Positions 14,410 through 64,000 of a stretch of DNA of 64,000 nucleotides are shown here, in pieces (the stretch's first letter is position 1; each line of letters starts with the position of its first letter). The stretch lies in assembly GCA_003194525.1 (NCBI GenBank), contig NBIV01000200.1, positions 51,731 through 115,730 on the forward strand, given 5' to 3'. The notes below the pieces were generated by a model that was not told where the DNA came from, searched no databases, and saw nothing but the letters and a program-made list of their open reading frames with translations. This DNA comes from Gracilariopsis chorda (taxonomy: Eukaryota; Rhodophyta; Florideophyceae; Gracilariales; Gracilariaceae). A program made the position numbers and the translations under genes.

Positions 14410-15216
14410 TGTAGTGCAACGCCCTCAGGGAGGGATTCCTGGTACTTGATTGTTTTCCCGATATTATCGGTTGTGTAGTGTGTATGTGAACTAAGCCCCA
14501 CAATGGTGGGTATGGACACGTGGGACACGGTTTTGGGTCAATTGGCGGTTGGCCACAGTAGTGGATGTTGCCACGAAATGTGGAGTATTTTAGTTGATTT
14601 TATTTATTATTTTCACACCCATTTCTGGGAAGCTAGTACTTAGTGCGACGGCGCACTGCCGTCGCACCAGTAAACCTTCCCCAACATGGGACCCCAACCT
14701 GGGGAATTGGCTCTGAGCTTTACCGCCTCCGCGTGTTCTCAACTCCTCCTTGGAGGGAAGCACCGTAGTGTACGGAAGTTCACCCCCCTTGCACATCTAA
14801 AGGAGACCCATCATTGGGAGTACTAATTGTTCCAATCATATTGGTGTTTCGCCCTGTATAGGGAGTCCTGTCCACCGGCATTGCCGTATCTACTCGTCGC
14901 TCTCGCGACCCACTTCGTCCTTCCTCTTTCCCCTTTTTAGGGTAGCACCTCCCGCTATCCGCGGCCCTCGTGTGCGCATCCGCTCACACACCCCCACTTA
15001 CGTGAAACATACCTCTACTGAGAATCACACCCCGCTCACGCGGATACCGATTCTTCGCCTTCACCTCCCTGCGCGAGTCGCGACAGGTGTCCCTGGTCTT
15101 ACAAACCGGCTTCGCCGTGACACCTCTGGGAGGGCTCTACCCAACTGGGTTCACCTCGTGAGAGGAAGATCCCGGACGTCTTTCGGTGTTTTTCCCCTTT
15201 GGGGCATTGCACCACA
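14410..15216 (+). repeat. 5' LTR of gypsy copy A
   Basis: 807 bases, TGTAGTGCAACG to GCACCACA, ending TG...CA. Boundaries agree with the solo LTR at 42906-43712, which is fixed by its target duplication. Its first 60 bases or so differ from the 3' LTR while the rest is nearly identical. Confidence 0.93.
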
Positions 15217-15219
15217 AAG

Positions 15220-15232
15220 TGGTCTCCCGACC
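15220..15232 (+). other. Primer binding site
   Basis: TGGTCTCCCGACC, three bases after the LTR. TGG pairs with the CCA end of a tRNA. The same 13 bases occur beside the LTR of copy C (34713-34725, minus strand). I cannot name the primer tRNA. Confidence 0.75.
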
Positions 15233-15321
15233 TAGAATCGGTTTTTGTTTTCCCTCTTACGAGGTTTGTTTTCATTCACCGGAAGTTCCGTGATCGTTTC
15301 TCGTCGTAACGGTATTTTCTC

Positions 15322-17496
15322 ATGTCGAGAAATCCCTCCGACGCGGAGCCAGTGGTTACGCGTAGTCGCTCCCGCGACAACGCGGACACTTCCGAAGTTC
15401 GGTTCGTACCCCGTGTCCCTATACGGACAAGTTCCAGCCGTGCTGGCGCCGCTTCATCGCGGAATGATACCCCCGACCGGGAACCCCGGAACCTCCTTTT
15501 GCCCTCGTTATCACCACCGCAGGGGAATGCAGCATCGACTCCGGCTGTTGCCGCAGTGCCCCAGGCACCCCGGCCTGCTCCCGCTGTCGCGGCTTCAAGC
15601 CCCCGTGGAACGGGCGATAACACCCCCCAGGGGACTTCCCTGGAATCCCAGGTCCGCGCTCTGTGGACCGCCCATGACACCCTTGTAGGGGAACTAAAAT
15701 CCCTCCAAGAGGTGGTCTCGGCAACCCCCGTAAAGGACGTCGCCGAGGAACTCCGTATTTTACGGTCTGACGTCAACTCCGTGTTGGAGAGTTTGGGACA
15801 ACCCGCCGCCTTCATCGAAGGAGTTGAAGCCCGATTTGATCGGATTGGTGCCCGCCTGGAGACGCTGGAGCAGTTCATCCTCATGGACAAACCATCCCCG
15901 GGTGATCCGGTAAACGAGGCATCGCACAACGACCAGGTTGCTGGGAAGAAGAAACGCCGTCACCGACGGAAACACCACCGAAAATATTCGGACTCCGATT
16001 CTTCGACATCGTCGGACTCATCCCGAAACCATTCGGTTAGCTCGAGCTCCTCGGACTCCGACTCGGAGGACGAGAAGCGAGGCTACTCCTCCCCCTCGAA
16101 GCGGTCATCGGCCACTGAAGGTGTGGTCCGAACCCGCCAGAAGGGGAGAAGACACCCCGGTCTCCCAGAATTGAAACCGACAAACCCGGATTACCGGAAG
16201 CGTTTATCATACCGGTACTACCGGCTTGAAGATTCGTCACTTGGACGTACGCCCCGTGGTACGGGAAAGGTGCGAGAATGCATTAAGCGAATGCAGCTCT
16301 CGCTCCGCAACCAGTATTTTACTGGAGAGGACCCAGTCCTAGTACTGGATTTCCTATCCCGCTTTGTAGCGGAGGCCGATATCCTCGGTATGAATGAGGG
16401 ACAAGCCTATTTGGCTTTACCGTATTTCTTACGGGGAGTGGCGGAGGACCAATACACCTCTGTCAGAGGATCTTCTCGCGCTTCCGAGGGAGGAGTTACT
16501 TGCTGGCCGGAGGCTGTGCAGTATCTTCTGCGCTCCTACGCCACCAACACCGCTATTCAGCAGGCTATCCTCGCGTTGCGAGATGCATGCCAGCGTGCTG
16601 GAGAGACCGAGACTGATTACTCGGTGCGCCTTAACAAGGCTTTCCACAGATGTGGTAACGTATACCCCGCTGGGGAGCGCAGTACCATGTTCATTGATGG
16701 TCTTGACCCGGCAATCCGGAGTTTAGTTACCCGTTATCGGGAGGACAAGCGAAGGATCACCTACCTCGAGCTGGTCCAACACGCTCGAGCGGAAGGGGAT
16801 GCACTTCGTGCAAGAACTCCGAACAATCGGTCTAAATCCGCCAAGGCGTTGTTGCTGGAAAGCGAAGCTTCCTCTCTCCCGCTCACCGCGGATGGGAACC
16901 CTGGACAGGGATTTGATACCGTGCATTTAGCGCAGGGGGATGGTGTGTCGATACCCACCAGTGAGTTACCGTCAACGACGGAGATGACCCATGATACGGG
17001 AACAGAAGATCCCGTTCTATACGGTGGTAACAGTCGGGTTTAACCCCAACGACTCCCGTTTTCAAACGGTCAATCCCGTTATCAACGGCCTGGATGGACT
17101 GACACCCGCTCTGCGGTTCGCTTCTCCGATACTCGGAATAATAATCCGCGTGTCGCGGTGCTGGCTCTCATTTGCCACCTGTGCTATGCCCATGGCCATA
17201 CCTCTCCTCAGTGTATTTGTTCACTGAAGGATATGGCCAAGGTGGTGGCAAATTATGAGGCCCTCACTCCAGAGGAGAAACGTTCCGTCCCGACGGCTTC
17301 CTACCTCCGTGCTAAAACGGACTTTTCCCACGCCCTACCACAGACCCCGCGTGCGCGGCAAGCTTCATACACCCCGATTCGGGAGATCACGCAACCATCC
17401 GTTGCAACCCCCGCTTATGCGGATAGAAACCCCCGTCAACGGGATGAAGCACTCGTTGTCGAGGAAACCAACCCACCGCCGAAGGCGGAAAACTAA
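15322..17496 (+). pseudogene. gag: Gag of gypsy copy A (one in-frame stop)
   Basis: Structural protein that assembles the particle and binds element RNA. It opens with ATG at 15322. The N-terminal third is Ser/Pro/Arg-rich with a predicted coiled region (near VEARFDRIGARLETLEQ) and a basic, Ser/Asp-rich patch. The Ty3-type capsid domain lies at about 16230-16820 (LVLDFLSRFVAEAD, LPYFLRGVAEDQY, NKAFHRCGNVY). An in-frame TAA at 17041-17043 interrupts the frame; copy C has a sense codon there. After it, in the same frame, comes a zinc knuckle C-x2-C-x4-H-x4-C (about 17167-17208). Gag ends TAA at 17494, directly after GGAAAAC, the likely -1 shift site into pol. Confidence 0.9.
17487..17493 (+). 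promoter_or_regulatory. Putative -1 ribosomal frameshift heptamer, gag/pol
   Basis: GGAAAAC sits immediately before the gag stop, and pol continues in the -1 frame. Copy B has the same bases (63862-63868, minus strand). Copy C has the canonical GGGAAAC at the same place. A stem (CTCCC/GGGAG, 17507-17520) follows 13 bases downstream and could act as the stimulator. Confidence 0.6.
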
Positions 17497-17498
17497 AT

Positions 17499-20400
17499 GA
17501 GGGAGTCTCCCCTTTGGGAGAGGCGTCCTCAAGAACGAGGCTGTTGGCGCCCGAGGCGTCCTCGCCTCGCTCCCCGGTGAAAGTCCTCTCGAGGAAAGAC
17601 ACCGCTGACGCGGACTCTGCGCACCTCGGTGTGTTGCGTCGCCCGTGGATACGGAGTAAAAATCCCCGGATTCCCGGTAGAGTCTTGGTCTTGGCCAAGC
17701 GCAATTATAAGGTCTATGCCGACCTTGGCCTTGACCCCCAGTTTATGGTGAGGTTTCTCACCGTCCTGGATACAGGTGCAGGCCCCAACTTTGTTGTGGA
17801 ATCATTGTTACCCCCGCTTGTGCGGTCGCATATCCGCTCTGACGCGGTCCCCGACATTTTGAATGCGAACAACAATCCGTTACAAACGGTGGGCACAGTG
17901 GACCTCGTCGTGTGACTTGGTACCTCTGTGGTGAAGTTGGACTTCATTGTTTGCCGTTCATTGGCAGCACCAGTCATACTGGGATGTGATTACTGCGACA
18001 GATTTGTCGACGCAATCAGGCCCCGCCTCAGGCGTGTAGAACTTGAAGACGGATCGTCGGTTCCGATTGTTCGCCGCCTGCTAAAGCGGTCCTCTCGGAA
18101 ACAAGTTCCGCTCCCTGCTGCGCAGGAACCACCGCCCGCGTCCCGCGAGTCCACCAAGCTCCGCGTCGCTGCCTCGGTTTCTATACCGGCTGAGTCCCAA
18201 GTCTGGGTGCAGGTAAATTCCCGTCAACACGGTCTTCGGGTTATACAACCCCTCGCCTCGTTGTACGAGAAATCCCAGCTGGCGCTGGCTAATGGAATTG
18301 TCTCCATTTCCCTGGATGTCCCTTTCCGGATATTGGTTGCCAACCTTGGCAAACACCCCCAGTATCTGGTCAAACACCAAGTAATTGGGAGTGTAGCCCC
18401 CCATCCTATGGGAATGCTGCCAACAAAGATGACAGCCGCCGATGTACTCGGAGTTACCACCTCTTCTGAGGAGTTCGCCCCGCCGCCCGAAGACGTCAAG
18501 TCTAAGGAGGGGGAGGAAACCGCTACTTCAGCGCCGAACATACCGAGTAACTCGGAATTGCGAACCACACCTGTTCCACAGGACAATGCTCCATCGAGCA
18601 ATGACCGGATTGATCCGGAAAAAGCACTTGAAGCGCTGGACTTCAGCCACGTGCCAGAGTCGCACCGCGACAAACTCCGTACTATGTTACGGGATTTCAC
18701 CACAATGTGGGATGGCTCGCTTGGCTCGCTTGATGCAACGGAACACCGGATCGATTTAATCCCCGGTGCGCGACCGGTTGCACAACCCCCTTACAGGGCA
18801 GGTCCGAAAGCTCGGGAAGAGGAGCAGTCCCAGGTGGACAAGATGCTCCGCGCAGGTGTGATTGAGCCCGCTCAATCACCCTGGGCATCCCCAGTTGTAC
18901 TCGCTTTAAAGGCCGACGGAACCTGGAGGTTCTGTGTCGACTACCGCCGGCTCAATGCCGTGACTGTTAGGGACACGTACCCCATCCCTCGTATGGACGA
19001 GTGCATTGACTCCCTTGGAAACGCCACCGTGTTCACGGCCCTTGATGCCAATTGGGGATATTGGCAAGTACCTGTCAGACAGGAGGATCGCGACAAAACC
19101 GCATTCACCTGCCATGCAGGAACGTACCGCTTCAAGCGGGTGCCATTTGGGTTAACAAACGCCCCCGCCACCTTTCAGCGTGCAGTAGATATTCTACTCA
19201 ACCGCTTTAAGTGGCGGAGTTGTCTGGTCTACCTTGATGATATCATCATCTTCTCCAACTCGTTGGACGACCATCTCACTCACGTCCGAGACGTGCTCAC
19301 CGTACTCCGCGATGCGGGAATTACCCTCAAGTTGAGGAAATGCGAGTTTTTCACAGATACTGTGAAGTATCTGGGTCACATTATCCGTCCTGGACGGTTA
19401 GCGATCGAGAAAACTCGAGTCAAATCCCTCGTTGAGGCGAAAGAACCCCGTACTCAAACGGAACTGCGCTCCTTTCTGGGGCTGGTCAACGTCTATCGAC
19501 GGTTTATCCCGAACTTTTCGGATACTGCAGCGCCCCTGAACGCGTTGTTGCGAAAGGGGAACCCCCCAAAACTGGGAACATTTACGCCCGAGCAATCGGA
19601 AGCTTTTAACTCCTTAAAGGAGGCTGTCACACCAGCACCAATCCTACATCTCCCAAAACTTGGGTTGCCATACTCCGTAGCTACGGACTCGAGCGACTAC
19701 CAAGTCGGGTGTGCTCTTTTTCAAACCACCCCCGAGGGGGAACGACATCCAATTGGTTATTGGTCACGTTCGCCCAATGTTCATGAGCGGAACTACTCCG
19801 TATCGGAGAAAGAGTGCCTCGCCGTCGTATGGGCGATGACCACTCTGCGCCCCTATCTTATGGGAATTCACTTCACCGTGTACACGGATCATTCCTCATT
19901 GAGGTGGTTGATGAATATCTCCGACCCGTCGGGACGCCTCATGCGCTGGAGACTCCGCCTCGCGGAATATGACTTTCAAGTCATTTATAAAAAGGGTGCG
20001 CAGAACACCCAGGCCGACGCTTTATCGCGGTTAACCACAAGTGGGGAAGCCCTCCCAACGGAGGATGATGAAGTCCCATGCTTCATGGCTATAGACCCGG
20101 ATGATCCGGAATATGCCGTCGAGGCTAGGCCAGAAACCTGGGACGAGGATGCTGATTTTGACGAACTACTCGCATCGCGAGATAAATCTGAGAACCCGTT
20201 ACCGGGAAACTTTGTACCGGTATCACCGGAAGAAATGATCCGGGAACAATTCGGCGACCGATTCTGTACGAGAATTCGTGCCCGTATCAACGGTGGTGAA
20301 GATCTCCCTTTCGGGGTAAACGACAAAGGCTACCTCGTAAGAAAGGTCGAAGCCCGCCCACAGATTGTGGTACCACATTCCCTGCAATCGCGGGTGTTAC

Positions 20401-23075
20401 ATCTATCACACTACGCCCCCATTGGAGGTCACCCAGGTGGGAGGAAACTCTACCTAACCCTGCGAAGGGATTTCTATTGGCCCGCAATGGCGGTGGATTG
20501 CTACGCAACTGTGCGGTTTTGTAGCGAATGCGCGAAGAATCGCGTCAAACTCCGCAAAAATGCGAAGAAGATGAAACTATTCCCCGCAAGGGCGCCGCTC
20601 GAGTTTATTGCGATCGATATTCTCGGACCATTACTCACCACGAAACGTGGAAACAAGTTTCTACTTGTCATTACCGACCGCTTTTCTAAGCTGGTAGGGA
20701 CTGTCCCTCTTCGGAGGATAACCGCTCTCACGGTGGCCCAGGCTCTGGTGACACACTAGATTTTTGTCTACGGTCCCCCTGTAGAGGTGCTCTCTGACAA
20801 CGGGAAGCAGTTCGTGAGCAAGTTCTTCCAGGATGTTTGTCGCATCCTCGATGTCAAGAACTTGTTCACGACTACCTACCACCCCCAGTGTAATGGGCAA
20901 GTTGAACGGTTTAACCGGACGTTACTCGCGGCGTTACGTTCCTACGTCGCTGACCACCCAACGAATTGGGATCTCTACGCTGATGCGGTAACCTACGCGT
21001 ACAATACGCAGGTACACCGGACTACCGGAGTTTCGCCATTCGAGTTAGTTCTATCTAGAACACCCCCGCCTGTGGCGCTGGAACCCCAAGCTACCTTGGA
21101 CAATTTCCCATCTGTGGGTATCTACCGGCAGCAATGGAAGCAATGGCTTTCCAAGCTGGTCCCCGCTGCGCGGAAGTCTATGGCACGGGCCCAAGCCGCT
21201 TACAAGCGGAATTTTGACGCTCGCGTGCGAGGAAAACCGTCCCCGATTCGGGCAAATAACTACGTCTTCATCAGGAAGGAATACTACAACCCGGAACGGG
21301 AGAAGCGTCACAAACTCTCGCCTGTGGCGGATGGACCCTTCAAGGTGATCTCTGTTAACACCGACACTGTTGTGGTAGAGATGGGGGACACGCACGAAAG
21401 GATTTCCCGTGATCGTGTTGTCCTTGCCCCTCCTCCCTCGTCAGAGGTAGTCCTGGATCCAGGCAACCCCGTTTCTACGGACTCCGCTACACCGGAATAA
21501 TCCGGGAGTACTAGACCTACGGTACTACCACACCCCAGCCGGGGACTCTCAGACCTACCGACTCTGTCGGACTCACCGGCTCAGCCGGGTAATTCGGGCC
21601 CCTCAGCGCCCGCCCCTACCACGTCTGCCCCACTGGCGCGCATCTATACCCGCCAGGCGGGGAATGTTATCCCTTATCCCGCCGCTGCGTCTAAGGAGGG
21701 GGAGGAGAACACTCGTTTTCGAGGAACGATATCACCGTCGCAACGGGAAACACACGGTAACATACGGAACACTGACCGTGGAGCACGGAGTATGTCATGC
21801 GACACTAATCCCCCGTTCCCGGGCAGTGCTGTGCAACAGGAACCAGACGCGCAGGCCCCGCAAAAGCGGCAAATACACCGTTTGTCACGGGAAAACGAGA
21901 AGCCTCACTCCAATACCGCAGCAGCGGAAAGGCAATCGCCCGATGCCTCGAAGCCGCCGTTGGCGGAAGTCCCCGCGGAAGCGGTTCAATCAGGTCGATC
22001 AGACCCGCGCCCTGCGGAGAAGGGGCGCCCAGATACGCCGGCCTCACAGGGGAATACTCACACCCCTCTTGGGGAAAAAGGCGGCCAAGCTGCAGTCGAA
22101 GCTTTAAGCCCTGGCTCGCAAGCACCGGAAACGTCTCCCGTCGTTGACGGAATCAAAGCCCCCGCTACGGGGAATAATTTGCGCCAACCCCCGCATCGCT
22201 GCGGCGAAGAACCGAGAAACTCGGGAATAACGCGCGCCATCGCACGCTCGAAACCGGTCGTACCGGACTCTGCTCCTCCTCACGGAGATGGTGCACTGTG
22301 CTCAGCGGCCATTCCCCTGAAAAGGGTGTCATCGGCACCTGCCCAGCACCCCCCAAAGGGGAATTTTGACCAAAATACCGGTGTACCGGAGTTAGCCCCA
22401 GGCAACCCGTCAGTAGCCGGGGACACCACGGCGTCGCCGGAACGTATGGTGCAGAGCGCTCGTGCGCCTGGCAGGGAGGCGGTTTGCCACCCAATCACCG
22501 TGTCGCACGGGACCCCCCAGGGGATTGTGGAAATGCCGATCCCGCAGGAGCGGTCATCTTCCAGCAAACTCGCGGTTCGTGAGCTCAACCGCGAAGGCGG
22601 AGCCCAAGTCCCCCGCCGACTGGCGGTTCGCCCGGCCTACCGTGAAGACGGGAACAACGACACCCCAATGGGGAACGACTTGCCGGTGAAAACCGTGACA
22701 CCACACACCCTCTTGAGGGATATTTTCCCGCATGAGCAGCGGCCACTAGGACAGCGCACGGCAACGTCGGAGTTATCGCCGAACAACCTGCTAAGGGACA
22801 TTATACCGCACAGTGGGCAGCCCCCGCAGGGAAGTACAACCACCACCCGGCACGGCCGGCAGGTCTACGAACGAGAGTTCGTAGTAGACCGACTTGTCGG
22901 ACACACCTGGGACCAGGATGGTATTCTACAATACCGCGTCCGCTGGTACGGGTACAACCCCAGTGGGGATACGTGGGAGCCAATCGAACACCTCCCACGG
23001 TCGCAGGTCGTGCGATACCACCGTCAAACGGGAACTGCAGCTCCAGCCACGCTGGTAAATGCCCAAGTTGGGTAA
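17499..23075 (+). pseudogene. pol: Pol of gypsy copy A with chromodomain (three in-frame stops)
   Basis: One continuous frame apart from stops TGA 17913, TAG 20757 and TAA 21498; copy B reads CGA, TGG and CAA at these codons. Order of domains: aspartic protease (VLDTGAGPN, near 17770); reverse transcriptase at about 18790-19400 with LDANWGYWQVPV and the catalytic YLDDIIIFS; RNase H at about 19660-20030 (ATDSSDYQVG, YTDHSSLRWL); integrase with the H/H and C-x2-C zinc site (FCSECAKN near 20520) and D, D, E residues (IAIDILGP, LSDNGKQF, GQVERFNR); a long polar linker; and a chromodomain at about 22866-23025 (VRWYGYNPSGDTWEP). The chromodomain places it among chromoviruses, whose integrase is thought to target modified histones. 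Expressed, if at all, by -1 frameshifting from gag. Confidence 0.93.
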
Positions 23076-23383
23076 CGTTGCCGCGCGAGCGGAGAGCGAA
23101 AGTAAAGGATAACAAGACAAGGTCCGTCGAAGACGTGGAACTCAAACGAGAATTACCGTTCTAAACGGGAAAGTTTATTCAAGGGAGCAGCTAGCTCCCC
23201 ACAACACTATACTACACTGCTGGCTATGCCAGGAGAGAAGAACTAGGAAACAACGGCTGGGGTATCAGGGGCTGGTGACTCTGATGCAGAGGAAATTACC
23301 GGAGAACCGGAGACGGCGCACGCGCTTTTATCACCCATTTTCGTCTGGGAACCCTCTGCGTCCGCGGTCGTTTTCCCGTCTTA

Positions 23384-23393
23384 GGGGGGGATA
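23384..23393 (+). other. Polypurine tract
   Basis: GGGGGGG followed by ATA directly before the 3' LTR. The same tract precedes the LTR in copy B (56245-56254, minus strand). It primes plus-strand synthesis. Confidence 0.75.
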
Positions 23394-24201
23394 TGAAGTG
23401 CAACGCCGTCAGGCAGGAATTCTGGGTACTTGAACGCTTTCCCGATATTATCGGTTGTGTAGTGTGTATATGAACTACGCCCCACTATGGTGGATATGGA
23501 CACGTGGGACACGGTTTTGGGTCAATTGGCGGTTGGCCACAGTAGTGGATGTTGCCACGGAATGTGGAGTATTTTAGTTGATTTTATTTATTATTTTCAC
23601 ACCCATTTCTGGGAAGCTAGTACTTAGTGCGACGGCGCACTGCCGTCGCACCAGTAAACCTTCCCCAACATGGGACCCCAACCTGGGGAATTGGCTCTGA
23701 GCTTTACCGCCTCCGCGTGTTCTCAACTCCTCCTTGGAGGGAAGCACCGTAGTGTACGGAAGTTCACCCCCCTTGCACATCTAAAGGAGACCCATCATTG
23801 GGAGTACTAATTGTTCCAATCATATTGGTGTTTCGCCCTGTATAGGGAGTCCTGTCCACCGGCATTGCCGTATCTACTCGTCGCTCTCGCGACCCACTTC
23901 GTCCTTCCTCTTTCCCCTTTTTAGGGTAGCACCTCCCGCTATCCGCGGCCCTCGTGTGCGCATCCGCTCACACAACCCCACTTACGTGGAAACATACCTC
24001 TACTGAGGATCACACCCCGCTCACGCGGATACCGATTCTTCGCCTTCACCTCCCTGCGCGAGTCGCGACAGGTGTCCCTGGTCTTACAAACCGGCTTCGC
24101 CGTGACACCTCTGGGAGGGCTCTACCCAACTGGGTTCACCTCGTGAGAGGAAGATCCCGGACGTCTTTCGGTGTTTTTCCCCTTTGGGGCATTGCACCAC
24201 A
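23394..24201 (+). repeat. 3' LTR of gypsy copy A
   Basis: 808 bases, TGAAGTGCAACG to GCACCACA. It contains the conserved 10-bp hairpin at 23627-23651. Confidence 0.93.
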
Positions 24202-24998: not shown

Positions 24999-26040
24999 GA
25001 TGCCTTTCAAGCGAATACGAAAGCATAGTTTTGATATGTATTTAGGGTTTCTAAAAACCCCTAAAAAACCCGGTAATGAGAAAAAGCGCTTAGTAATAGT
25101 ATCTGAATGGACATTTTTTCTGCAACCTAAACTTGTAAGTTAAATTTTATATTCAGTATACATAAGCAAATCATCGATCAGCATTGAAATATTTACCTGT
25201 TGGGGTTTTTCCAATAATAGCTATGTGAGTTGTATGGTGGGCCTTACTAGCCAAACAGAAACAATGTACATTTTTGATGCTTAACTACTCAAGAATATTA
25301 TACCTGGAAGTTATGCAGGACAGAAATTTTACTCCTGTACTTCGAAATGTATGAAAACAACTTGAAGATATCGTAAAACAGCTATGGTAGTCTTTTGAGA
25401 AATGAAATCTGCATTTAAAGTGATGAAGGCAACTGTAAATGAGTTTTATGATAACTTTGCCGTCTTTGTAGAAGCTGCCACAGATGTAAACGCTTAATTT
25501 GAATGACACAATATAGAAACTTTTAATGCGGATCAAGTACAGAAACGGCTAGACCTAGTTCGAAAAGAGATGCCAGTGAGCAATCAAAAGCCGTAGAATA
25601 AATAGATGAAACTGCAAACATCTCTTCAAAACCCATATTGGTGATGGATCTAGAAAGCGCATAGAATATTCAAGATACAACAACTATAAAACATTTCTGC
25701 TAGATTTTAAATATAGAAAAGTACCACTAATTATTTTTGAAGGAAAGCCGACGGAACGGCCTTTGTGTGTGAAATTAAATCTGAAGCCCACAAAAGTAAA
25801 CTTGATTCTCACAGGAAAATTGGGTGTTAAAACAATGCATAAGGCGTCGATAGTTGTTGAAATCGAGCCCATATAGTAAAGCATAGAAACGTTTGGATTC
25901 ATACCCTATGAATAAAAGAGTACATTACTGAGGCTGAACTGGAATTTGTAGAGACTCCTGCTGTAGTGAAATGTGAGCCAACTGAAGGGCATGCGACTAA
26001 TCGCATAATTTGTATCACACGACCGATACCATAAGTTCTT
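24999..26040 (+). pseudogene. Decayed coding region of unknown origin
   Basis: Several + strand stretches look like protein sequence rather than noise but sit in different frames with stops between: 24999-25142 (starts MPFKRIRKHSFDMYLGF), about 25404-25497 (starts MKSAFKVMKATVNEFYDNF), about 25646-25876 (contains KVPLIIFEGKPTERPLCV), and about 25928-26034 (contains EAELEFVETPAVVKCEPTE). I recognise no family. The AT-rich composition, unlike the host genes, fits a foreign insertion such as a red-algal plasmid or virus, but this is only a guess. Confidence 0.35.
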
Positions 26041-27190
26041 CTGCGTAAGGTGCACGTAGCCTTTTTTTGTTTTGCGATATCTCGTACGGTACGTGTGAGT
26101 CATGGCTACAAGATCTGCAACGACAATTTCTGCGGCGTTATTGGAACACTCCTGAAATCACAATTCAGAAATTGCAACCGCACAAATTGTGATTAAAGTA
26201 CTTTCAAAAGTGATTTTTGCACGCGCGAAGACGCTGTTCTCTTAGAAAGGGTACCCCCTTTGAAGTACACCTTTTCGACGTATCAAATCTGGCGCGTTGG
26301 GCGCTGGCGCCTGGTGCAGCGCTTTCCAGGCAGCCGATCGCCACGCCCGTCAATGCTCTCTCGCCTCTCCCAGCTATGGATTCGCGCTATAAGCTGCTCT
26401 CAGCCCTGTCATCCCTTCCGCCGTGCTTTCGCACCAAAAATGGCTCTGGGCGCTATCATTGCTCCCCTCGCTTTGATTCTGTAGCATTTCGTCTAGTAAT
26501 GGTTCAAATCGCTGAGAGTGGTTAGGTTATGGGGGTGCCACTCATAAATTGCACTGTAATCGTGCGACGGTCAAGCTGTTTATGAGAAGAACCCTTCACA
26601 GGTGGATTAATGATAGACACTGGTTGTGGACAGCCCCACGTGTGTGGCGGGCTGATGCCCAAATTTAGTATATTTCTAGATCTTTATATTGGGAATTCCC
26701 ACTACACCAATTAGTGCAGCTGGTGCAGCTGCTGGCGGCGGCTCACTCAGAAAAGGAGACAGGCACCCATTGCCCTCAACTTAGAGGATCCTTCTGACCA
26801 AGATGTCATAGGGCCCTGCCTTCACGGAGCCTTACCGGCATAGCGGGATTGCAGCATTGCTCGAGGTCTCCCCCTTTGATTGTGCCATGTTTTCCGCTAT
26901 TTCGGGTGTGTCGTTGTCCGTGGGTTGTTGTAGCACAGGTTCCCATGTGGATTCCCGCTCTCCGCCTCATCCCACATTGGGATCTGGATCTCATGACCGT
27001 GACACATTCCTCGTCACCCTCGTCGACCTCCACTCGTGCTCGTGTGATCTCTGACCCCCTCGGCCTCTAGGATAGTTGCCCGCAACGAAGTGCCCGTCTA
27101 GTATGGTTGCTACTGTGGATACTCCACTACCAAGCCTTTACAGTCGATGGGGTTTTTAGGGGAATTTAAATCTTTCTCCTCAGCATTGTT

Positions 27191-28129
27191 TGTGGTGCAA
27201 TACCACGTGCGGAAAGGATCCCGCGACAGCGTCAAAGTCACCAAAGGTGTCTGAGCCTTGCTCTCTTAGTAGGGGCGGCTCAGAGGTAGAGCCATCCGAA
27301 TGTGACCAACACGAGTCGGATGTAGGACCGAGCGGTCATTTCTCGCACAGCGCACGGAAGTGTGGGGATAATCGGATCTAGCGCTAGACGGACAGTCGAT
27401 TAGTGTGCAACCCGGTGTTGCCGTTGGTCTGGTGGAATCCACTGCATGCCTCAGGGTGGCGAGTGGAACACCCATGAATGAGGGAACGATCCATACAACG
27501 GTATCCTCTGGGACAAAGCAATGAGGTGTGGGGAACGAGCCACACTGCGGGCGCAGACTCGTGACGAGCAATAAATATCCCGAGACGTCGGGGCCAAACC
27601 TGGACACAGGGCGGAGTAGAAATAGTCCGTATGACGTTAAACAGAAACAAAAACAACAAAAGAAAACAGAAGATAATCCGTAAGTAACGGTGATATCACT
27701 CCTTGATGCGCAAGGGGGATGACGGAGCCGGATCGGTAGCAGCACTCCCCTTGATTGAGGTTGTAGCCGTATACCAACGGTCAAAGTCAGAGCCAAGACC
27801 CTTGTTAAGGTTTACTTCCGTCGGGTGGCGGCAAGTGCCGCCACCTAAGTACGGCCACTGCAGTGTGGATTACTAACTAAAAATAACTAACTACCCCGGG
27901 TGCACCGTCCCTGAAATCCACGTGTACGTGGTGGCCCACTTGGCATGAGCCGCCCGCTCAGGCGGTGTGCACTACACGTGTTACCCACAAGAACCCCCTT
28001 CGTAGGGGCACCTCCCATATAATGGGTTAGCCCAACATACCTCATGTATTCCGTATCCCAACGGCTAACCACGCATCTAATATGAAGAGCGATTTAATTC
28101 CCTCTACCTCCAGAGGCCATTGCACCACA
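27191..28129 (-). repeat. 3' LTR of gypsy copy C
   Basis: 939 bases, TGTGGTGCAATACC to TTGCACCACA on the + strand, sharing the terminal pattern of the A/B LTRs. The inner end abuts a C-rich tract (polypurine tract on the minus strand, 28130-28140). It carries a hairpin at 27824-27845 at the place of the A/B hairpin. Confidence 0.75.
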
Positions 28130-28184
28130 TCTCCCCCTCTTGCGTCGAAAACAACGGAACAGCTTCGGCGAATTCCATCCCAAG

Positions 28185-29550
28185 ATGGCCATACATAACC
28201 GAAAGGACTCGGGCGATGCAACCGACTCATCGAAGAGCCAACGCAAATTCGCGCTTGTTCCTTACCATCCCCTTCCACGCCATCCAACGACGGCTGCGAT
28301 GAGCTCCAACCAACCACCAAACAACCCGTCATCGGGTCCTTCCTCTCTGCGAATCCCGCAGTATCCGAGGCGCACTCCGACTGCTTGGCTGTATGTCCCC
28401 GTGCAGTCGCGGTTTCGTTCGGCTCCCTTGCCACCTCCGCTCGTGACGCCTCCACCATCGGTGGCTCCGAGTGATGACATCCCCGCAGGTGCGGGTCAAC
28501 CAAACCAACCTTGCTTCCACGATTGGAGCGACGTGCGTGGCGTGTCGATGTCTACCGCTTCCAGTGGATGGCCAACGTATGGCGCTTTGCGCATCCGGAC
28601 TCTGGCGATGCATTCCGAGTGGTTCGCTCGGGCTCCTTGATTCGATCCCGAGGCTGTTCGGGACACTCCGCTCATCGATTCCTACGCGGCGGACGGCATC
28701 CTACCCGGTAGGCTACCAGTAAGCGTTGTCCGGTCGTGGAACCGGTTGGCGCACGTTGCGCTCCCCACGCCACTACTGTGGTGGGCATCAAAAGAAACCG
28801 AACATCGGGCGAGAAGTGAGATGGCCCGATTGGGCTATCGCCGATACCATCGGTTGGCAAACGAAGTCCCCGTCTCGTCGGGTTATGGGTTCGACGTCGC
28901 GTATTACCGTACTTACGGAGAAGCTTCCCACGGAGACAGTTTATACGGGGCGATACCAGAGTTGGACCAGTACTCTGAAAGCGTTCAGCCGTACCAGGAC
29001 CTGGTTCTCTGGACACGACCGATTCTCTGTGCTGAGTTCCGGTACCTCCGCAATAGTTCACGCGGTGAGTTCTTCGAGATGGTCCGCTTTGGGCGGAAGC
29101 AACGTTCCCAACGGGGGCTCCTGGTACCATACCAGCACATCGACATCGAATGCCTCTCGTCGAGGGCCTGGAATCGATACGTTCCGCTGCCGTGCTTTTG
29201 GACTGCGGTGGAAGTCCCTCGAGGGTGCAACGTTGAGCTGCCTCCGTGTCTCACGTACGTGTACTCACGGGTCTTGCACAATCACCCTCGCGGTCTCTAA
29301 AGTCTTCTAGCGACGGAGTGGACCGTCCGAGTTGCAGCCTTCCTCCTGTGGGAGATGTACGACAAGTACTGGGTCTGGTTCATTCCAGAGTTGCTCCGCC
29401 ATTCCATTCGCAGTTTGGGTCTCCCCGAGGTACTCAGTTCTGAGCGTAATGCGCGACAAGCCACCGGATTGGTGGACGTGATCGACCAGGTCGACTGGGA
29501 CACTGTACCAGCAACTCAAGAGTCAGAAGGGATCCGCCGTCGGTGGGATA
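28185..29550 (+). pseudogene. Antisense ORF of gypsy copy C (decayed homologue of 56302-58089)
   Basis: One + strand frame, antisense to gag-pol, broken only by TGA at 28638 and TAA at 29298. It aligns along its length with the intact ORF in copy B: WPTY early on, GFDVAYYRTYGE against GFDVSYFRTRGE, AEFRYLR against AEFRYLP, VPYQHIDIE against IPYQNVEIE, VELPPCLTYV against IELPPVLTYL, and YDKYWVWF against YDQYRLWF. The acidic C-terminal tail is lost at the deletion junction. Function unknown. Homology along the protein shows the frame was kept as a protein-coding gene before this copy died. Confidence 0.75.
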
Positions 29551-32378
29551 AATCAATGTTGTTCACCTCGAAAGCGAGATTCTCCCCGCCATGGAGGAGC
29601 GCACGTATCTTTGTACAAAAGAGATCACTGAACTGTTCTCGAATCATCTCCTCCGTCTCAACCGGTACGTAATTTCCCGGTATGGGCTTCTCAGCCTCCT
29701 CGCTCGAGGGGATTAGTTTGTCCAATTCAGCGTCCATATCCAGATCTTCTGGCCATTCCGGATCTTCCGGTGTAGCTCCGTCCACGACTTAGCACGGTAT
29801 CTCATCGTGATCCGCATTGGCGAGGGCTTCGCCACTTGTGGGCAAACGCAACAGTGCGTCAGCTTAGGTGTTCTTAGTCCCCTTCTTGTAGATGACTTGG
29901 AATTCAAATTCCGCTAAGCAGAGCCTCCACCGCATCATGCGGCCAGATGCATCTGATATATTCATCAGCCACCTCAACGAGGATTGATCCGTGTAAACGG
30001 TAAATGAAACTCCCATGAGATATGGGCGAAGTGTCGACAGAGCCCAGAAAACTGCAAGACACTCCTTTTCAGAGACGGAGTAGTTCCTTTCATGCACGTT
30101 TTAGTGAACGTGACTAGTACCTGATGGGGGATCGTTCCCCGTCCGGGGTGGCTTGGAATAGAGCACATCCAACCTGATGGTCGCTTGCATCCGTGTCCAC
30201 GGAGTAGGGTAATCCCGGTTTGGGCAATGCCAAGATTAGTGCTGAAATGACAGCCTCCTTCAAGGAGTTGAAAGAAACTCTTTGAGGGGGGGTAAGGGGG
30301 CCCAGTTTTGGTGGCTCTCCCTTCCGCAGGAGCGCGTTCTGGGGAGTGGCGACGTCCAAAAAATTCGGGATGAAGCGTCGGTAGACGTTGACCAACCCTA
30401 CAACGGAGCACAGTTCCGTTTGAGTACGGGGTTCCTTCGCCTCGGTGAGAGACTTAACTCGAACTTCCTCGATTGACAACTGTCCTGGACGGATAATGTG
30501 CCAAAGATACTTGATAGTGTCAGTGAAAAACTCGCACTTCCTCAGCTTGAGGCTAATTCCTGCGTCACGCAGCACGGTCATCACGTCCTTGACGTGGTAG
30601 AGATGGTCGTCCAGGTTGTCGGAGAAGATGATGATGTCATCCAGGTAAACCAGGCACCTCCGCCACTGAAAGCAGCTCATCAAAATGTCGATGGCGCGCT
30701 GAAAGGTGGCGAGAGCGTCGGTTAAACCGAACGGCATCCGCTTGAAGCGGTACGATTCTGCATGGCAGAGAAAAGCCCTTTTGTCACGGTCTTCCTCCCG
30801 GACGGGGACTTGCCAATATCCACGATTGGCATCCAAAGCCGTGAACACGGTAGCGCTCCCCAGGGAGTATATGCATTCGTCCATACGAGGAATAGGGTAC
30901 GTATCCCGTACCGTCACGGCATTGAGCCGGCGATAGTCGATACAGAACCGCCAGGTTCCATCGATCTCCAAAGCCAGTACAACTGAAGATGCCCACGGCG
31001 AATGAACCGGTACAATAACTCCAGCTCGGAGCATCTTATCCACTTGAAACTGTTCTTCTTCCCGGGCCTTTGGTCTTGCCCTGTATGGGGGTTGCGAGAT
31101 TGATCGCGTGTTTGGCAACAAATCAATCCGATGTTCGGAAGCATTAATCTCTCCAAGAGAGCCATCCTACATCGTGTTTAACTCCCGTAACATGTCTCGC
31201 ACACGTTCACGGTGTGACTCCCGTACATGACCGAGGTCAAGTCCTCCAGAGCCTTGACAGGATAAATTCTATCATAGCTCGTGGGCCCATGCGTTCCTGT
31301 TTCAGGCGTTTATTCTGAGGTGCTCGGTGAATTGTCCGCTGCTGCGGTAGCCTCCTCCTCCTCCTCAGACACGACGACGTCGGAGTTCGAATCTTCTGTA
31401 GGGGCAACAATTCCAAGTACATCGGCAGCAGTAGTCTTCGTTGGAGGCATAGCCAACGGATGCCGGGTTACTTATCCAATCAATTTGTTCTTCACCAGAT
31501 ACTGGGTCTTCGTGCCAAGATTGGCGACAAGCAGCCGGAACGGGACATCCGGAGTCACATTGACAAAATCCGTTTGCAACGGCAAGTTGATACTTCTCGT
31601 ACAACGAGGCAGGGGGTTGTACAACCCCAAGACCGTGTTGACGGGAATTGACCTGCACCATAACCTGTGTCTCAGGCAGAATAGAAACCGATGCCGCAAC
31701 GCGAAGTTTTATGGACTCCCGTGCAGCGGGGGGTGGTTTCTGCGCAGCAGGTAACGGAACTTGCTTCTGCGATGCCCGTTTAAGCGGTTTGCGAACAATG
31801 GGGACGGTTGACCCGTCGTCCAGTTCACCCAGTTTCTGGCGGGGCCTGATGGCGTCGATGAACCTGTCACAGTAGTCACATCCCAGTATTACTGGCGCAG
31901 CGAGCGAGCGGCAAACAATAAAGTCGAGCTTCACCACCAAGGTGCCCAATCTCACGACCAATTCGATTGTTCCTACCGTTCTCAACGGATTTTATTTCGC
32001 GTCGGCGACGTCAGGAACCGCGTCGGTGCAGATGCGAGACCGCATTTGCGGGGACAGCGTGGATTCCACGATGAAGTTCGGACCAGCACCTGTATCCAGC
32101 ACAGTAAGATAACTTACCATAAACTGGTGGTTCAGGCCAAGGTCAGCGTAAAATTTATAGTTTTGCTTGGCCATAATCAGGACTCGATCCAGGATCCGGT
32201 TATTCTTCACCCGTATCCAAGGACGACGCAGATCATTGAAGTGTTCTGAGTTCGCGTCAGCGGTGTCTTTCCTCGAGAGAATTATCACCGGGGAGGGAGG
32301 TGGCGGCGCCTCGGGCGTCGTCAGCCTCAACTCTGAGGACGCCTCTCCCGTTGGGAAGACTCCCTCCACTAGTTTCCC
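29540..32378 (-). pseudogene. pol: Pol of gypsy copy C (truncated, broken)
   Basis: Pieces at 31992-32369 (protease, VLDTGAGPN), 31365-31985, 30114-31121 (RT with the catalytic YLDDIIIFS; RNase H begins VDTDASDHQVG), 29864-30097 (RNase H) and 29540-29785. Frames change and stops lie between pieces. The frame stops being pol just after a VNN that matches VND in copy A, where the zinc site of integrase should begin. Confidence 0.88.
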
Positions 32379-34623
32379 TGGGCAGGGTCAGCTGCGGGCT
32401 GCTGCCCAGGTTCCTCGACCACGAGAGCATTAGCCCTTTGATTGGGGGGTCCCGCGTGAGCGGTGTTTGGATCGCGCATCTGCGGATTGGAACGAACCTG
32501 CTGTGCCGCAGCATACCGCGCAGGCGTGACAGTCGGGAGAGCGTGAGCGAAGTCCGTCTTGGCGCGAAGATACGATGCTATCGGAACAGACTGCTTCTCC
32601 CGCGGATTGAGTGCCTCATAGTTTCCCATGACTTTGGGCATTTCTCTCAAATAGTGTAGACACTGCGGTGCAGTATGCCAATGCATGTAGTATAAGTGGC
32701 AAGTGAGTGCCAGCAACCCACGTTGGTTCACATTCGGAGCTTCGGCGATTCGTACCGCGGGGCGGTTATCAACCCAACCTGGAAGTTGCTGACGAGTCAG
32801 TCCAGTTGCATGGGGGAGCTGCGGTGGTGAAACGCGATTGTTCCCCATGTAGAACAGCGACCCGTCCTGTGCCGTTTCAAAAGAGGCATCCGTCGTCGAC
32901 GGCAAGTCCACAGTTGGAATTGAAACTCCATCACCATGGGAAAGCTGTACGTTATCGTACACCTGTGGGGGCTGGTCGTCCGCTAAAAGCGAGAGGGACT
33001 GAGAGCGGTCCTCCGCCATCACAGCCCGTGCGGGTTTCAACCTCGCCTGAGAATGCCTCGCACGAAGTGCGTCACCTTCCGCTTGTGCGGATTGGACAAT
33101 GTCGAGGTAAGGAGCCCCCGGCTTGTCTTCTCGGTGGTGAGCAACAAGCGTCCGTATGGCAGGATTGAGCCCACTGATGAACATCGTCGAGCGCTCCCTT
33201 TCGAGGTAGAAATTGCCACAACGGTGGAACGCCTTGTTCAGGCGAGTTGAGTATTCATTCTCAGTCTCGCATGAGCGCTGACACGTGTCTCGCAAAGCGA
33301 TTATAGCCGACCAGATGGCATCATTCGTCGCGTATGACCTGAACAGGTACTGCACTGCTTCTGGCCAGCATGTAACTATTCCGTCGGAGGCTCTAGATGA
33401 ACCTCTAACAGAGTTGTACTGATCTTCAGCAAGTCCCCGTAAGAAATATGGCAGCGTGATGAACGCCTGTCCTTCACTCATGTCCAAGACATCTGCTTCC
33501 GTGACAAAGCGGGAAAGGAAATCCAATACCAAGATTAGGTCCTCCCCTGAAAAGGTGTGATTGCACAGCGAGAGCTGCATTCGCTTGATGCAATCTCTAA
33601 CCTTCGCCGTACTGTAGGGCATGCGATCCAAAGAGGAATCGCCAAACCGATAACATCTGTACGAAAGTAGCTTCCGATACATCGGATCCGTCGGTTGAAT
33701 TTCCTTCAAACCAGAGTGCCATCTCCCCTTGGTGCGGGTAGTAATATCCACGTGCGTGGCTATAGACCGTTTAGAACGGGAAGAGCGCTCACGTGAGCGA
33801 GGGCGTTCCCGGAAACGGGCTCGTCGTCCGCGACTGCGGTCAGAACTGCGACCAGGTCAGTGACGTCCACGCCGAACACGGCAGTCCTCATCGCTAGATG
33901 AGTCCAAGGAATCGGAACCACCCGAGTGACGGGAAGATCTCGACAAAGACGAGCAGTCGGATTCGTAATTTTTACGTTCCGACTTCCGCCTGTGGCGGTT
34001 ACTTCCCCCAGCATCGTGCTGGTCGCGATGCAATGCAAATGGAGGCCGGTCTTTCGGAGGATTGTCCATTAAAATGGTTTGTTTCAACGTCTCGAGACGG
34101 GCTCTCACGCTACCAAAGCGGTCTTCCATTCCTTCCACGAAGGCAGCGGGTACTCCCAAACATTCCAACACTGAGTTCACGTCAGACCGTAATGTACGGA
34201 GGTCCTCGGTGATCAAATTTGCAGGAGTTTCCTAGACTACCTCACGTAGGCTTCGGAGTTCCCCTACAAGGGCGTTGTGAGCGGCTCGCAGAGCGCGAAC
34301 CTGGTCTTCCAGGGATATTCCTGGGGGGTGTCGGATCTCGTTGAACGAGATTGTCCAGCCACGGTAGCGGGACTTGAGTGAGCCAAGGGTAGCGCACCAG
34401 GCGCGACTGAAGCCGGGCTAGCAACGTCCTCCGGGACAGCCGACTGGGTCGGAACATTCCGGGTTTCCCGAGGTTGATCCGCAGGCTTTGCGACGGCTCT
34501 CGTGGCAAGCGAGGAGCCTCCGCGAATCGGTACCTTGGAAACGAACCAATCGTCGGAGGCCTCCTCATCACGTGAGCGACTGCGTGTTACGACAGGCTCT
34601 GTGTTGGAGGGCTTCCTCGACAT
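32369..34623 (-). pseudogene. gag: Gag of gypsy copy C (frameshifted)
   Basis: ATG at 34623 (MSRKPSNTEPVVTRSRSRD, matching copy A gag). The frame shifts near 34300 and again between 33857 and 33760. The capsid domain is intact at about 33000-33640 (LVLDFLSRFVTEAD, NKAFHRCGNFY). The zinc knuckle has Tyr in place of its second Cys. Gag ends TAG at 32369-32371 right after GGGAAAC (32372-32378), a canonical -1 shift heptamer. Confidence 0.85.
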
Positions 34624-34712
34624 CCTTTAAACCGTTACCATGTAAAATCACGGAGCTTCCGGAACCGAAACCTCAAAGAGGGAACAATACACGAAATTGG
34701 TAAAGGTTTCTA

Positions 34713-34725
34713 GGTCGGGAGACCA
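34713..34725 (-). other. Primer binding site of gypsy copy C
   Basis: TGGTCTCCCGACC on the minus strand, identical to that of copy A, three bases from the LTR edge at 34729. Confidence 0.72.
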
Positions 34726-34728
34726 CTT

Positions 34729-35370
34729 TGTAGTGAAATGCCCGCAAGCGGGAAAACACTCCGAAGATGTTCGGGATCTTCCTCTCACGAGGTGAACCCA
34801 GTGTAAGAGCCCTTCCACAGATGACACGGCGAGGCCGGTTGTAAATCGGGGTCACCCTTCGCGACAAGCGTAGGAAGGTAATTAGAGGCCGGTTTTCGGT
34901 AATGCTCCAAAGGAGGCAGGTGTCAACACGGTTTTGCACACACGACGGTAAGTCGGTATGAGCCACGACATTGGGAGCTGCCCAAAAAGGGAAAAGGAAA
35001 GGAAAAGGAAAGGGAAAAGGGGAGAGAATGGAGTAGGGGTGCGAGTCACGAGAAGGACTCGGGCGCGAAGCGGCAGGGCCGGACAAACCGTATAGATGGG
35101 CAAAAACCACAACAGTGGGTAATAGTATCCCAAATATGGGCTTTCTTAGGCGAGCAAGGGGTTTGAGTGACCATTTACAACGGGATACCTCTCCGCAATG
35201 GAGTTTAGTGCCGCGGAAGGTGAGAGCACTCAGAGCCAAGTTCTTGGAGTAGAAAAACCTTGTTGGGGAAGTGTACTGAGCGCTGCACTAAGTACAGTAG
35301 ACTACCCAGTGTAATAGCTAAATAAGTAAATAAGTTGTATCTAGCCCGCTATCCACTACTGTGGTGTACC
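34729..35370 (-). repeat. 5' LTR of gypsy copy C, outer end missing
   Basis: Inner end TGTAGTGAAATGCCC; similarity to the A/B LTR continues up to the CCACTACTGTGG at about 35352-35363. The last 140 bases expected at the LTR start are absent and copia gag sequence begins at once, so the outer end was lost. It includes a purine-rich run at about 34985-35030. Confidence 0.65.
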
Positions 35371-45002: not shown

Positions 45003-45111
45003 GTTTGTTTAGTTCGAAACGTGGGCGCGATAGCGTTCGCGCTTGGCCTACTTCTTTTGGCCGTACTAGAAAGTCGCCTACCACCAGGATGTACTGGGGA
45101 AGCTCTTGGAA

Positions 45112-45332
45112 AAGAGAGAGGCATACCCCAGGAGCAGCACCGCTCCGGCAGGTACCGATCTCAAATACTTGTGCCACCCGGCGCCGGCGGCGGTGACTGC
45201 GGTTGATCCAATTCGGATTAATGATCTGATCATGACGAATTGCGTACACGGCGTGTCATACCACCTGCGTGGCTATCTTTGCTATCCATGACGTCGTTAT
45301 GTTTCATCCGCGAAAACAAGTCTTCACAAGAC
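45112..45332 (-). repeat. Direct repeat of element E, right copy
   Basis: 221 bases matching 40666-40886 with four substitutions. It marks the 5' end of the element on the minus strand. Confidence 0.9.
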
Positions 45333-55437: not shown

Positions 55438-56244
55438 TGTGGTGCAATGCCCCAAAGGGGAAAAACACCGAAAGAAGTCCGGGATCTTCCTCTCACGAGG
55501 TGAACCCAGTTGGGTAGAGCCCTCCCAGAGGTGTCACGGCGAAGCCGGTTTGTAAGACCAGGGACACCTGTCGCGATTCGCGCAGGGAGGTGAAGGCGAA
55601 GAATCGGTATCCGCGTGAGCGGGGTGTGATCCTCAGTAGAGGTATGTTTCCACGTAAGTGGGGGTGTGTGAGCGGATGCGCACACGAGGGCCGCGGATAG
55701 CGGGAGGTGCTACCCTAAAAAGGGGAAAGAGGAAGGACGAGTGGGTCGCGAGAGCGACGAGTAGATACGGCAATGCCGGTGGACAGGACTCCCTATACAG
55801 GGCGAAACACCAATATGATTGGAACAATTAGTACTCCCAATGATGGGTCTCCTTTAGATGTGCAAGGGGGGTGAACTTCCGTACACTACGGTGCTTCCCT
55901 CCAAGGAGGAGTTGAGAACACGCGGAGGCGGTAAAGCTCAGAGCCAATTCCCCAGGTTGGGGTCCCTTGTTGGGGAAGGTTTACTGGTGCGACGGCAGTG
56001 CGCCGTCGCACTAAGTAATAGCTTCCCAGAAATGGGTGTGAAAATAATAAATAAAATTAACTAAAATACTCCACATTCCGTGGCAACATCCACTACTGTG
56101 GCCAACTGCCAATTGACCCAAAACCGTGTCCCACGTGTCCATACCCACCATTGTGGGGCGTAGTTCATATACACACTACACAACCGATAATATCGGGAAA
56201 ACGTTCAAGTACCCAGAATCCCTCCCTGAGGGCGTTGCACTTCA
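55438..56244 (-). repeat. 3' LTR of gypsy copy B
   Basis: 807 bases, TGTGGTGCAATGCC to GCGTTGCACTTCA on the + strand. Flank ATTAG at 55433-55437; the matching duplication, if any, lies outside the window. Hairpin at 55987-56011. Confidence 0.93.
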
Positions 56245-56247
56245 TAT

Positions 56248-56254
56248 CCCCCCC
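56248..56254 (-). other. Polypurine tract of copy B
   Basis: Seven C on the + strand (G on the minus strand) next to the LTR, as in copy A. Confidence 0.75.
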
Positions 56255-56301
56255 CTTAAGACGGGAAAACGACCGCGGGCGCGGAGGATTCCCAGACGAA
56301 A

Positions 56302-58089: not shown

Positions 58090-58280
58090 AACCTCTAGTC
58101 CAGTTTCCTGGTTCTTCTTTCCCTGGCTATGCCAGTTAGTGTAGTGTAGTATCGTGGGGAGCTAGCTGCTCCCTTGAATAAACTTTCCCGTTTAGAACGG
58201 TGCTTCTCGGTTGAGTTCCCCGTCTTCGACGGACCTTGTCTTGTTATCCTTTCCTTTCGCTCTCCGCTCGCGCGGCAACG

Positions 58281-63868: not shown

Positions 63869-64000
63869 GCCTTCGGCGGTGGGTTGGTTTCCTCGACAAC
63901 GAGTGCTTCATCCCGTTGACGGGGGTTTCTATCCGCATAAGCGGGGGTTGCAACGGATGGTTGCGTGATCTCCCGAATCGGGGTGTATGAAGCTTGCCGC
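63859..64000 (-). pseudogene. gag: 3' end of gag of gypsy copy B
   Basis: Last 46 codons of gag, matching the end of gag in copy A, up to the TAA at 63859-63861. GGAAAAC (63862-63868) precedes the stop. The rest lies outside the window, so whether this gag is intact is unknown. Confidence 0.85.

What the first reader, a model, noticed from the sequence alone, without database searches (positions are those of the whole stretch)
14410..24201. Gypsy elements are carpeted with short perfect inverted repeats, about one every 20 bases
Seen directly. In copy A, 17391-17564 holds eight consecutive hairpins: 17391-17405 (GCAAC/GTTGC), 17411-17422 (CCGC/GCGG), 17432-17443 (CCCGT/ACGGG), 17452-17463 (CTCG/CGAG), 17476-17488 (CCGCC/GGCGG), 17506-17521 (TCTCCC/GGGAGA), 17527-17540 (CCTC/GAGG), 17552-17564 (CGAGG/CCTCG). 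Longer ones: 18858-18879 (10 bp stem, 2-base loop), 19675-19686 (CCGTAGCTACGG), 22865-22884 (8 bp). The antisense ORF in B shows four in 75 bases (56473-56485, 56492-56504, 56515-56527, 56535-56547). LTRs show the same. Between A and B a loop can change while the stem stays (17531-17536 AAGAAC, B AAAAAC). Copia D, element E and the SRPRA gene do not look like this. It spans coding and non-coding parts, so protein sequence does not explain it. Possible causes: selection for a globally structured RNA genome (packaging, resistance to nucleases or to RNA silencing), or a mutational habit of the reverse transcriptase that perfects near-palindromes by template switching.
Basis: seen in the sequence. 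Interest (0 to 1): 0.87.

Follow-up and report, generated by a model that had tools for sequence, protein, structure and literature searches.

The report
Retrotransposon covered in matched mini-hairpins
A family of jumping genes in a red seaweed carries hundreds of tiny, perfectly paired hairpins of one particular shape along its whole length, and the pattern of mutations suggests they are kept by selection for an unknown job.

Summary
In copy A, stems of 4 bp or more with loops of 3-4 nt number 242 against 63.5 in dinucleotide shuffles; four element ORFs have 39-69 against 13-20 in codon-preserving shuffles. LTRs and an antisense ORF are covered too. Copia copies, eight other window ORFs and three distant gypsy loci lack it; 9 of 9 closer gypsy loci have it, and, weaker, one relative in a bacterial MAG.

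It is not a globally structured RNA. It is one motif: outermost pair 5'C-G3' (196 against 20.3; G-C 21 against 19.3), strictly Watson-Crick, centres often about 20 nt apart. Sense-strand hairpins of equal predicted energy with G-C outside are not enriched.

Positions turn over between families. Single-copy variants neither create nor avoid hairpins; variants shared by copies hit stems less (16 against 29.8; loops 3-4 alone 10 against 16.0); substitutions between families create hairpins at twice the blind rate (97 against 46.6). This favours selection over mutation bias. Best guess: a dispersed array of protein-recognition hairpins, possibly read by Gag.

The parts
14410..15216 (+). 5' LTR of element A, carpeted (22 hairpins with loop 3-4 against 3.7 in shuffles)
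15310..17043 (+). gag-like ORF of A (stop to stop; TAA at 17041-17043); no Pfam hit itself, several homologues carry PF03732; hairpins 39 against 14.2 in codon shuffles
17044..17493 (+). Continuation of the gag frame up to the next stop; holds a CCHC-like knuckle at 17173-17214 (motif label recalled)
17391..17564 (.).
17916..20759 (+). pol ORF of A, first part: RVT_1, RNase H, integrase zinc domain; hairpins 69 against 20.0 in codon shuffles
21501..23075 (+). Open stretch in the same frame as the pol ORF, taken as later pol; hairpins 40 against 13.2
23394..24201 (+). 3' LTR of A; density falls to background just past 24201
26000..35000 (-). Element C region (approximate limits), interrupted copy of a related family; weaker carpet (143 against 54.5)
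42906..43712 (-). Further LTR copy, carpeted
55438..64000 (-). Element B (runs off the window), carpeted (213 against 57.3)
56260..58089 (+). 609-aa ORF antisense to element B, mostly in a segment that A lacks; hairpins 39 against 15.8 in codon shuffles

Best explanation
One lineage of Ty3/Gypsy elements in this red alga carries a selected array of a specific short hairpin over its whole length: about 24 per kb in A with outer pair 5'C-G3' (stem 4 or more, loop 2-5; mostly stem 4-5, loop 3-4), linkers of about 5-13 nt, giving a spacing near 20 nt. SHOWN: the enrichment, the polarity, the strict Watson-Crick rule, the favoured linker, the clade limits in this genome, the turnover of positions, and the contrast of variant classes. 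INFERRED: the hairpin forms in single-stranded nucleic acid, because complementarity of freely varying inner pairs cannot be read from a duplex. INFERRED: it is recognised by a factor that reads the base of the stem and needs linkers, so fitness depends on how many sites are present more than on where. GUESS: the factor is the element's own Gag/nucleocapsid (a CCHC-like knuckle lies in the gag frame) coating genomic RNA or cDNA at about one unit per 20 nt.
For: Polarity in A: outer C-G 196/20.3, G-C 21/19.3, A-T 16/11.3, T-A 16/12.3; CC-N9-GG with three inner pairs 54/1.3, GG-N9-CC 0/0.8. In five sequences of four families at predicted RNA energies of -7 to -4 kcal/mol, C-G-outer hairpins are enriched 14-15-fold, G-C-outer 1.0-1.4-fold (sense strand). 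Codon-preserving z 6.2-14.3 in four element ORFs, -0.5 to 1.1 in 8 other ORFs. 30 of 30 A-family copies, the best 30 of 113 scored, 2.4-2.8x. Of 12 gypsy loci picked from 150 listed, the 9 with RT 67-81% identical to A show 2.7-3.4x. Variant classes, loops 2-6: singletons n=358 create 42 against 44.5 and hit 118 against 122.5; shared variants n=85 create 15 against 11.0 and hit 16 against 29.8 sd 5.0; between families n=388 create 97 against 46.6 sd 7.0, control loops 43 against 48.6. At 81% identity 53% of 49 loop 3-4 hairpins are kept against 11% of 35 control pseudo-stems. Spacing in A: centre distances 18-20 and 21-23 nt 28 and 27 pairs against 13.4; gaps 0-3 nt 6 pairs, 8-11 nt 45, against 21.2.
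Against: No binding partner is shown and Gag as reader is a guess. The depletion of shared variants rests on 85 variants; for loops 3-4 alone it is 10 against 16.0 (z -1.6), control loops also go slightly down (6 against 9.4), and shared variants create 7 against 4.3 there. A rotation null gives 7 against 13.3 sd 3.2 in A and 6 against 5.9 in Cx (L074 still included). Four LTR copies: 5 of 36 variable columns in stems, no clear depletion (10 of the 36 are overhang columns). At 69% identity hairpins are no better kept than controls, and stems change as fast as loops. The 388 substitutions come from five overlapping comparisons. Polarity is weak in F3 and absent in L081. Interior G.U is not tolerated (25/23.7), unusual for an RNA signal; in C general hairpins show a small G.U excess (54/39.1, A.C 51/42.2). 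In the antisense reading one G-C-outer bin reaches 3.2. The later spacing peaks (39, 63 nt) are single bins in A and not seen in the other families. The flanking A seen in A (3' flank 0.42-0.53) is not clear in the antisense segment.
Confidence: 0.5

Rival explanations
1. Mutational origin: reverse transcriptase (or replication) template switching copies one arm into the other and perfects near-palindromes, so hairpins accumulate at each cycle without function.
For: Perfect pairing without wobble, tight loops of 3-4 nt, coding and non-coding parts alike. Template switching has been proposed to create and repair hairpins (PMC8794818; abstract and found passages read). Copy C is weaker than its relatives, so upkeep seems tied to the active life of the element. 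Shared variants create slightly more than blind (15/11.0, 7/4.3 for loops 3-4).
Against: 358 singletons and 85 shared variants together create 57 against 55.5. Hairpins differing by two changes (loops 3-4): 42 in one arm, 51 in both; controls 45 and 75. Of 16 private clusters in A1 and A2, 1 raised the local hairpin count, 8 lowered it, 7 left it. G-C-outer hairpins are not enriched in A; the asymmetry that paper explains by switching is G-C and U-A, the opposite of C-G.
Confidence: 0.2
2. Selection for RNA structure as such (genome-scale ordered RNA structure, resistance to nucleases or to silencing).
For: Stems are depleted of shared variants; folding energy is better than shuffles (mean z -1.96 sense, -1.56 antisense in A).
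Against: Equal-energy G-C-outer hairpins are not enriched on the sense strand; interior G.U is not accepted; loops of 7 or more are not enriched in A; the global folding gain is modest.
Confidence: 0.1
3. Register with small-RNA silencing: a self-folding hairpin about every 20-21 nt spoils most small RNAs cut from either strand, since the hairpin is the same on both strands.
For: Favoured spacing about 20 nt, strand-symmetric strict Watson-Crick stems, carpet also in the antisense ORF.
Against: Does not explain the C-G polarity. No small-RNA data were available.
Confidence: 0.1
4. Palindromic binding sites read in double-stranded DNA by a dimeric protein.
For: The motif is palindromic with fixed ends.
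Against: CC-N9-GG without inner pairing is little enriched (0 inner pairs 41/28.9, 1 pair 43/32.2, 2 pairs 26/11.5, all three 54/1.3), so pairing itself is needed.
Confidence: 0.04
5. Chance, composition or codon usage.
For: None that survived controls.
Against: Dinucleotide and codon-preserving shuffles and same-genome controls.
Confidence: 0.01

Closest known systems
Dispersed packaging signals of single-stranded RNA viruses (reviewed in PMC6281560, abstract and outline seen; MS2, STNV, parechovirus and HBV papers seen in the listing only)
   Same: Many short stem-loops with a shared recognition motif scattered through the genome; presence matters more than place.
   Different: Here it is an LTR retrotransposon with hundreds of sites, motif in the base of the stem (in the HBV abstract it is in the loop), strict Watson-Crick, sites also in LTRs; no binding protein shown.
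Genome-scale ordered RNA structure of RNA viruses (recalled; term searched)
   Same: Excess base pairing along a whole genome, coding included.
   Different: The excess is confined to one small hairpin type of fixed polarity and favoured spacing; the global folding gain is modest.
Template-switch hairpins (PMC8794818)
   Same: Perfect local stems.
   Different: Variants among copies show no clear hairpin-creating bias; polarity is opposite.
Ty3/Gypsy elements with chromodomain relatives
   Same: RVT_1, RNase H and integrase zinc domains; relatives with PF00385.
   Different: No Gypsy with such a carpet is named in the listed titles and abstract starts (listings capped; most subscription papers not held).

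Membership tests
Ty3/Gypsy LTR retrotransposon | LTRs plus RT-RNase H-integrase order | tested here: met
   LTR pair of A; RVT_1, RT_RNaseH, Integrase_H2C2 in that order
Ty3/Gypsy LTR retrotransposon | Chromodomain at the end of pol (chromovirus) | not tested
   Present in many homologues; not searched in the window copy itself
Dispersed packaging signals | Multiple short stem-loops sharing a sequence motif beyond chance | tested here: met
Dispersed packaging signals | Evidence that the signals are under selection | tested here: inconclusive
   Contrast of variant classes favours selection; rotation null and LTR copies weaker
Dispersed packaging signals | Bound by the capsid or Gag protein | not testable with these tools
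   needs binding experiments
Genome-scale ordered RNA structure | Folding energy well below shuffles, wobble pairs used | tested here: not met
   mean z -1.96 in A, -0.79 in C; interior G.U 25 against 23.7
Template-switch mutation product | New variants copy one arm into the other | tested here: not met
   limited by variants that probably arose after insertion

The most novel reading that the evidence does not exclude
A retrotransposon lineage has evolved a genome-wide hairpin code: a hairpin-linker unit of about 20 nt recurring over the entire element, in coding, antisense and LTR sequence, selected for number and spacing more than position, and read by a cognate protein whose preference has shifted between families. 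To my knowledge it would be the first LTR retrotransposon seen to format its whole genome as a nucleoprotein scaffold.
Probability: 0.33. Interest if true: 0.92.

Novelty: new variant of a known kind. Interest (0 to 1): 0.82.

Why it matters
If selected, it is a very dense set of structured signals in a retroelement and shows a second code laid over protein-coding sequence that evolves by turnover. It makes testable how Ty3/Gypsy Gag chooses and packs its RNA, and warns that codon choice in such elements is not neutral. If mutational, it would reveal a reverse transcriptase or repair process with a strong, polarised palindrome habit.

Tried and rejected
Global RNA folding: modest, rejected as the main trait. 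Wobble tests on general and motif hairpins: no G.U acceptance in A or in the motif set; a small excess in C (54/39.1 against A.C 51/42.2). Duplex palindrome reading: rejected. One-arm copying test: no sign. Search of IMG/VR for DNA of close relatives: none with a single protein, one distant locus with an alignment (L077, loops 3-4 at 0.71). Genome contigs: 19 loci. Of these 20 distant loci only L081 shows the carpet clearly (57 against 26.0 for loops 3-4; codon shuffles 37 against 16.4 and 20 against 10.6). L085, L089, L092 and L093 show a weaker loop 3-4 excess (1.46-1.70), against a dinucleotide null only; unexplained. Cx copy L074 has non-homologous flanks that inflated singleton counts; dropped. 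One search also dropped sites with a gap within six columns, with more than two alleles, or with more than one copy missing. L029 was left out of the A1/A2 variant counts, and B of all of these but. F3 was left out of the pooled sets. One search's printout was cut in the middle. Structure of the antisense ORF product: queue full, not obtained.
Full report
The window lies in a 91.3-Mb genome. It is most likely Gracilariopsis chorda: a homologue of the antisense ORF is named from that species and sits on a contig of 445,473 bases, the length of contig C30 here.

Check of the observation. 15 of 15 named inverted repeats are present, and the loop change between A and B is as stated. The per-kb excess over dinucleotide shuffles holds for each kb of A and B in the window and more weakly in C, and falls to background at the right LTR edge of A. 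In A the stems with loops of 3-4 number 242 against 63.5, in B 213 against 57.3, in C 143 against 54.5. In A loops of 1-6 are enriched, 3 and 4 most, and 7 is not. Codon-preserving shuffles give z 7.4 (gag), 14.3 and 8.9 (pol) and 6.2 (antisense ORF of B); 8 other ORFs in the window, two of them copia and six not identified here, give -0.5 to 1.1. The hairpins are not copies of one sequence: 290 of 291 outside the 3' LTR are distinct.

Where it occurs. 30 of 30 A-family copies (the best 30 of 113 scored; A is one of them) show 2.36-2.84 times the shuffle density; 20 of 20 copia loci (best 20 of 150 scored) 0.92-1.20; four loci around other matches of one 12-base palindrome 0.92-1.30. Of 12 other gypsy loci, picked from 150 listed, the 9 with RT 67-81% identical to A show 2.7-3.4 and the 3 with RT 36-42% identical show 0.8-1.3. 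The nine fall into three groups, which with A and C make five families. Among 20 loci outside this genome one, L081, on a contig titled as a Robiginitomaculum MAG (probably stray algal DNA, inference), has a weaker carpet; four more have a small excess against a dinucleotide null.

What the hairpin is. In A the outermost pair is C-G in 196 cases against 20.3 expected; the other three pair types stay near expectation. The second pair is mostly C-G, the inner pairs vary freely but must be complementary: CC-N9-GG with no inner pair 41 against 28.9, with all three 54 against 1.3. In the motif set an interior G.U is no better than an A.C (25/23.7 and 29/27.1 against 420/40.7 for full pairing; five sequences, F3 not included). 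At predicted sense-RNA energies of -7 to -4 kcal/mol the C-G-outer class is enriched 14-15-fold and the G-C-outer class 1.0-1.4-fold; read as antisense, one G-C bin reaches 3.2 (9 against 2.8). So stability alone is not the selected trait. The same polarity is seen in Cx, L060 and F2; in F3 it sits mostly one pair further in; L081 shows none. In A, hairpins with C-G ends avoid abutting and favour linkers of about 5-13 nt; centre distances of 18-23 nt are twice expectation, with two later single-bin rises at 39 and 63 nt (19 and 22 against 13.4) that other families do not repeat; those show 12 and 11 against 7.3 at 18-23.

How it evolves. Families 69% identical share loop 3-4 hairpins no more than control pseudo-stems (11% and 11%); at 72% 21% against 9%, at 75% 24% against 11%, at 81% 53% against 11%. 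So positions turn over while density is kept. Among copies, 358 single-copy variants create and hit hairpins at the blind rate; 85 shared variants hit stems about half as often as blind (16 against 29.8 sd 5.0 for loops 2-6; 10 against 16.0 for loops 3-4; control loops 6 against 9.4) and create them near the blind rate (15 against 11.0); 388 substitutions from five overlapping family comparisons create them at twice the blind rate, with no effect for control loops. The gradient from new to old is what selection would give. Limits: single-copy variants are probably mostly post-insertion host mutations, so an RT-specific bias is not excluded; a rotation null gives a weaker depletion; four LTR copies show no clear depletion (5 of 36 variable columns in stems). 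Copy C has fewer loop 3-4 hairpins in the RT piece than eight Cx copies (16 against 19-23), as expected if upkeep stops after insertion.

Mechanism. Free inner complementarity requires a single strand folding on itself. Fixed polarity, narrow size, linkers and family-specific drift of the motif suggest recognition by a protein, about one per 20 nt. The element's Gag, with a CCHC-like knuckle in the gag frame, is the obvious but unproven candidate. Whether RNA or cDNA is folded is open: the lack of wobble fits DNA, or a need on both strands, while the A flanking the hairpins in A on the sense strand (flank pairs A-A 56, T-T 17) fits sense RNA.

Literature. The titles and abstract starts listed name no such carpet in a retroelement; some listings were capped (15 of 68) and most subscription papers are not held. 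PMC8794818 was read in abstract and found passages, PMC6281560 in abstract and outline.

Noticed in passing
56260-58089 (+), inside element B (-): A 609-aa ORF antisense to the element, mostly in a segment of about 1.8 kb that A lacks; three homologues found (59%, 51% in Gracilariopsis chorda, 38%), no Pfam family above cut-off; conserved but unknown.
   Followed up: partly
L005-L034, locus position about 2950: A-family subfamilies A1 and A2 are nearly identical for 2.9 kb (24 fixed differences) and then differ at roughly a quarter of positions for the last 1.1 kb: mosaic elements.
   Followed up: partly
14410-14510 versus 23394-23494: Of 17 differing columns between the two LTRs of A, 13 lie in the first 101 and 4 in the remaining ~700, as if the start were patched from another copy.
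   Followed up: partly
14643-14667 (LTR): A 10-bp stem with a 5-base loop in the LTR, unchanged in all four LTR copies aligned; much longer than the carpet hairpins.
   Followed up: no
L085, L089, L092, L093: Distant gypsy-like loci in bacterial assemblies show a weak excess of loop 3-4 stems (1.46-1.70).
   Followed up: no
17041-17043: The gag frame of A has a TAA stop before the CCHC-like knuckle; other copies were not checked.
   Followed up: no
45001-46000: A moderate hairpin excess outside A, B and C (33 against 22.0, z 3.4); not identified.
   Followed up: no
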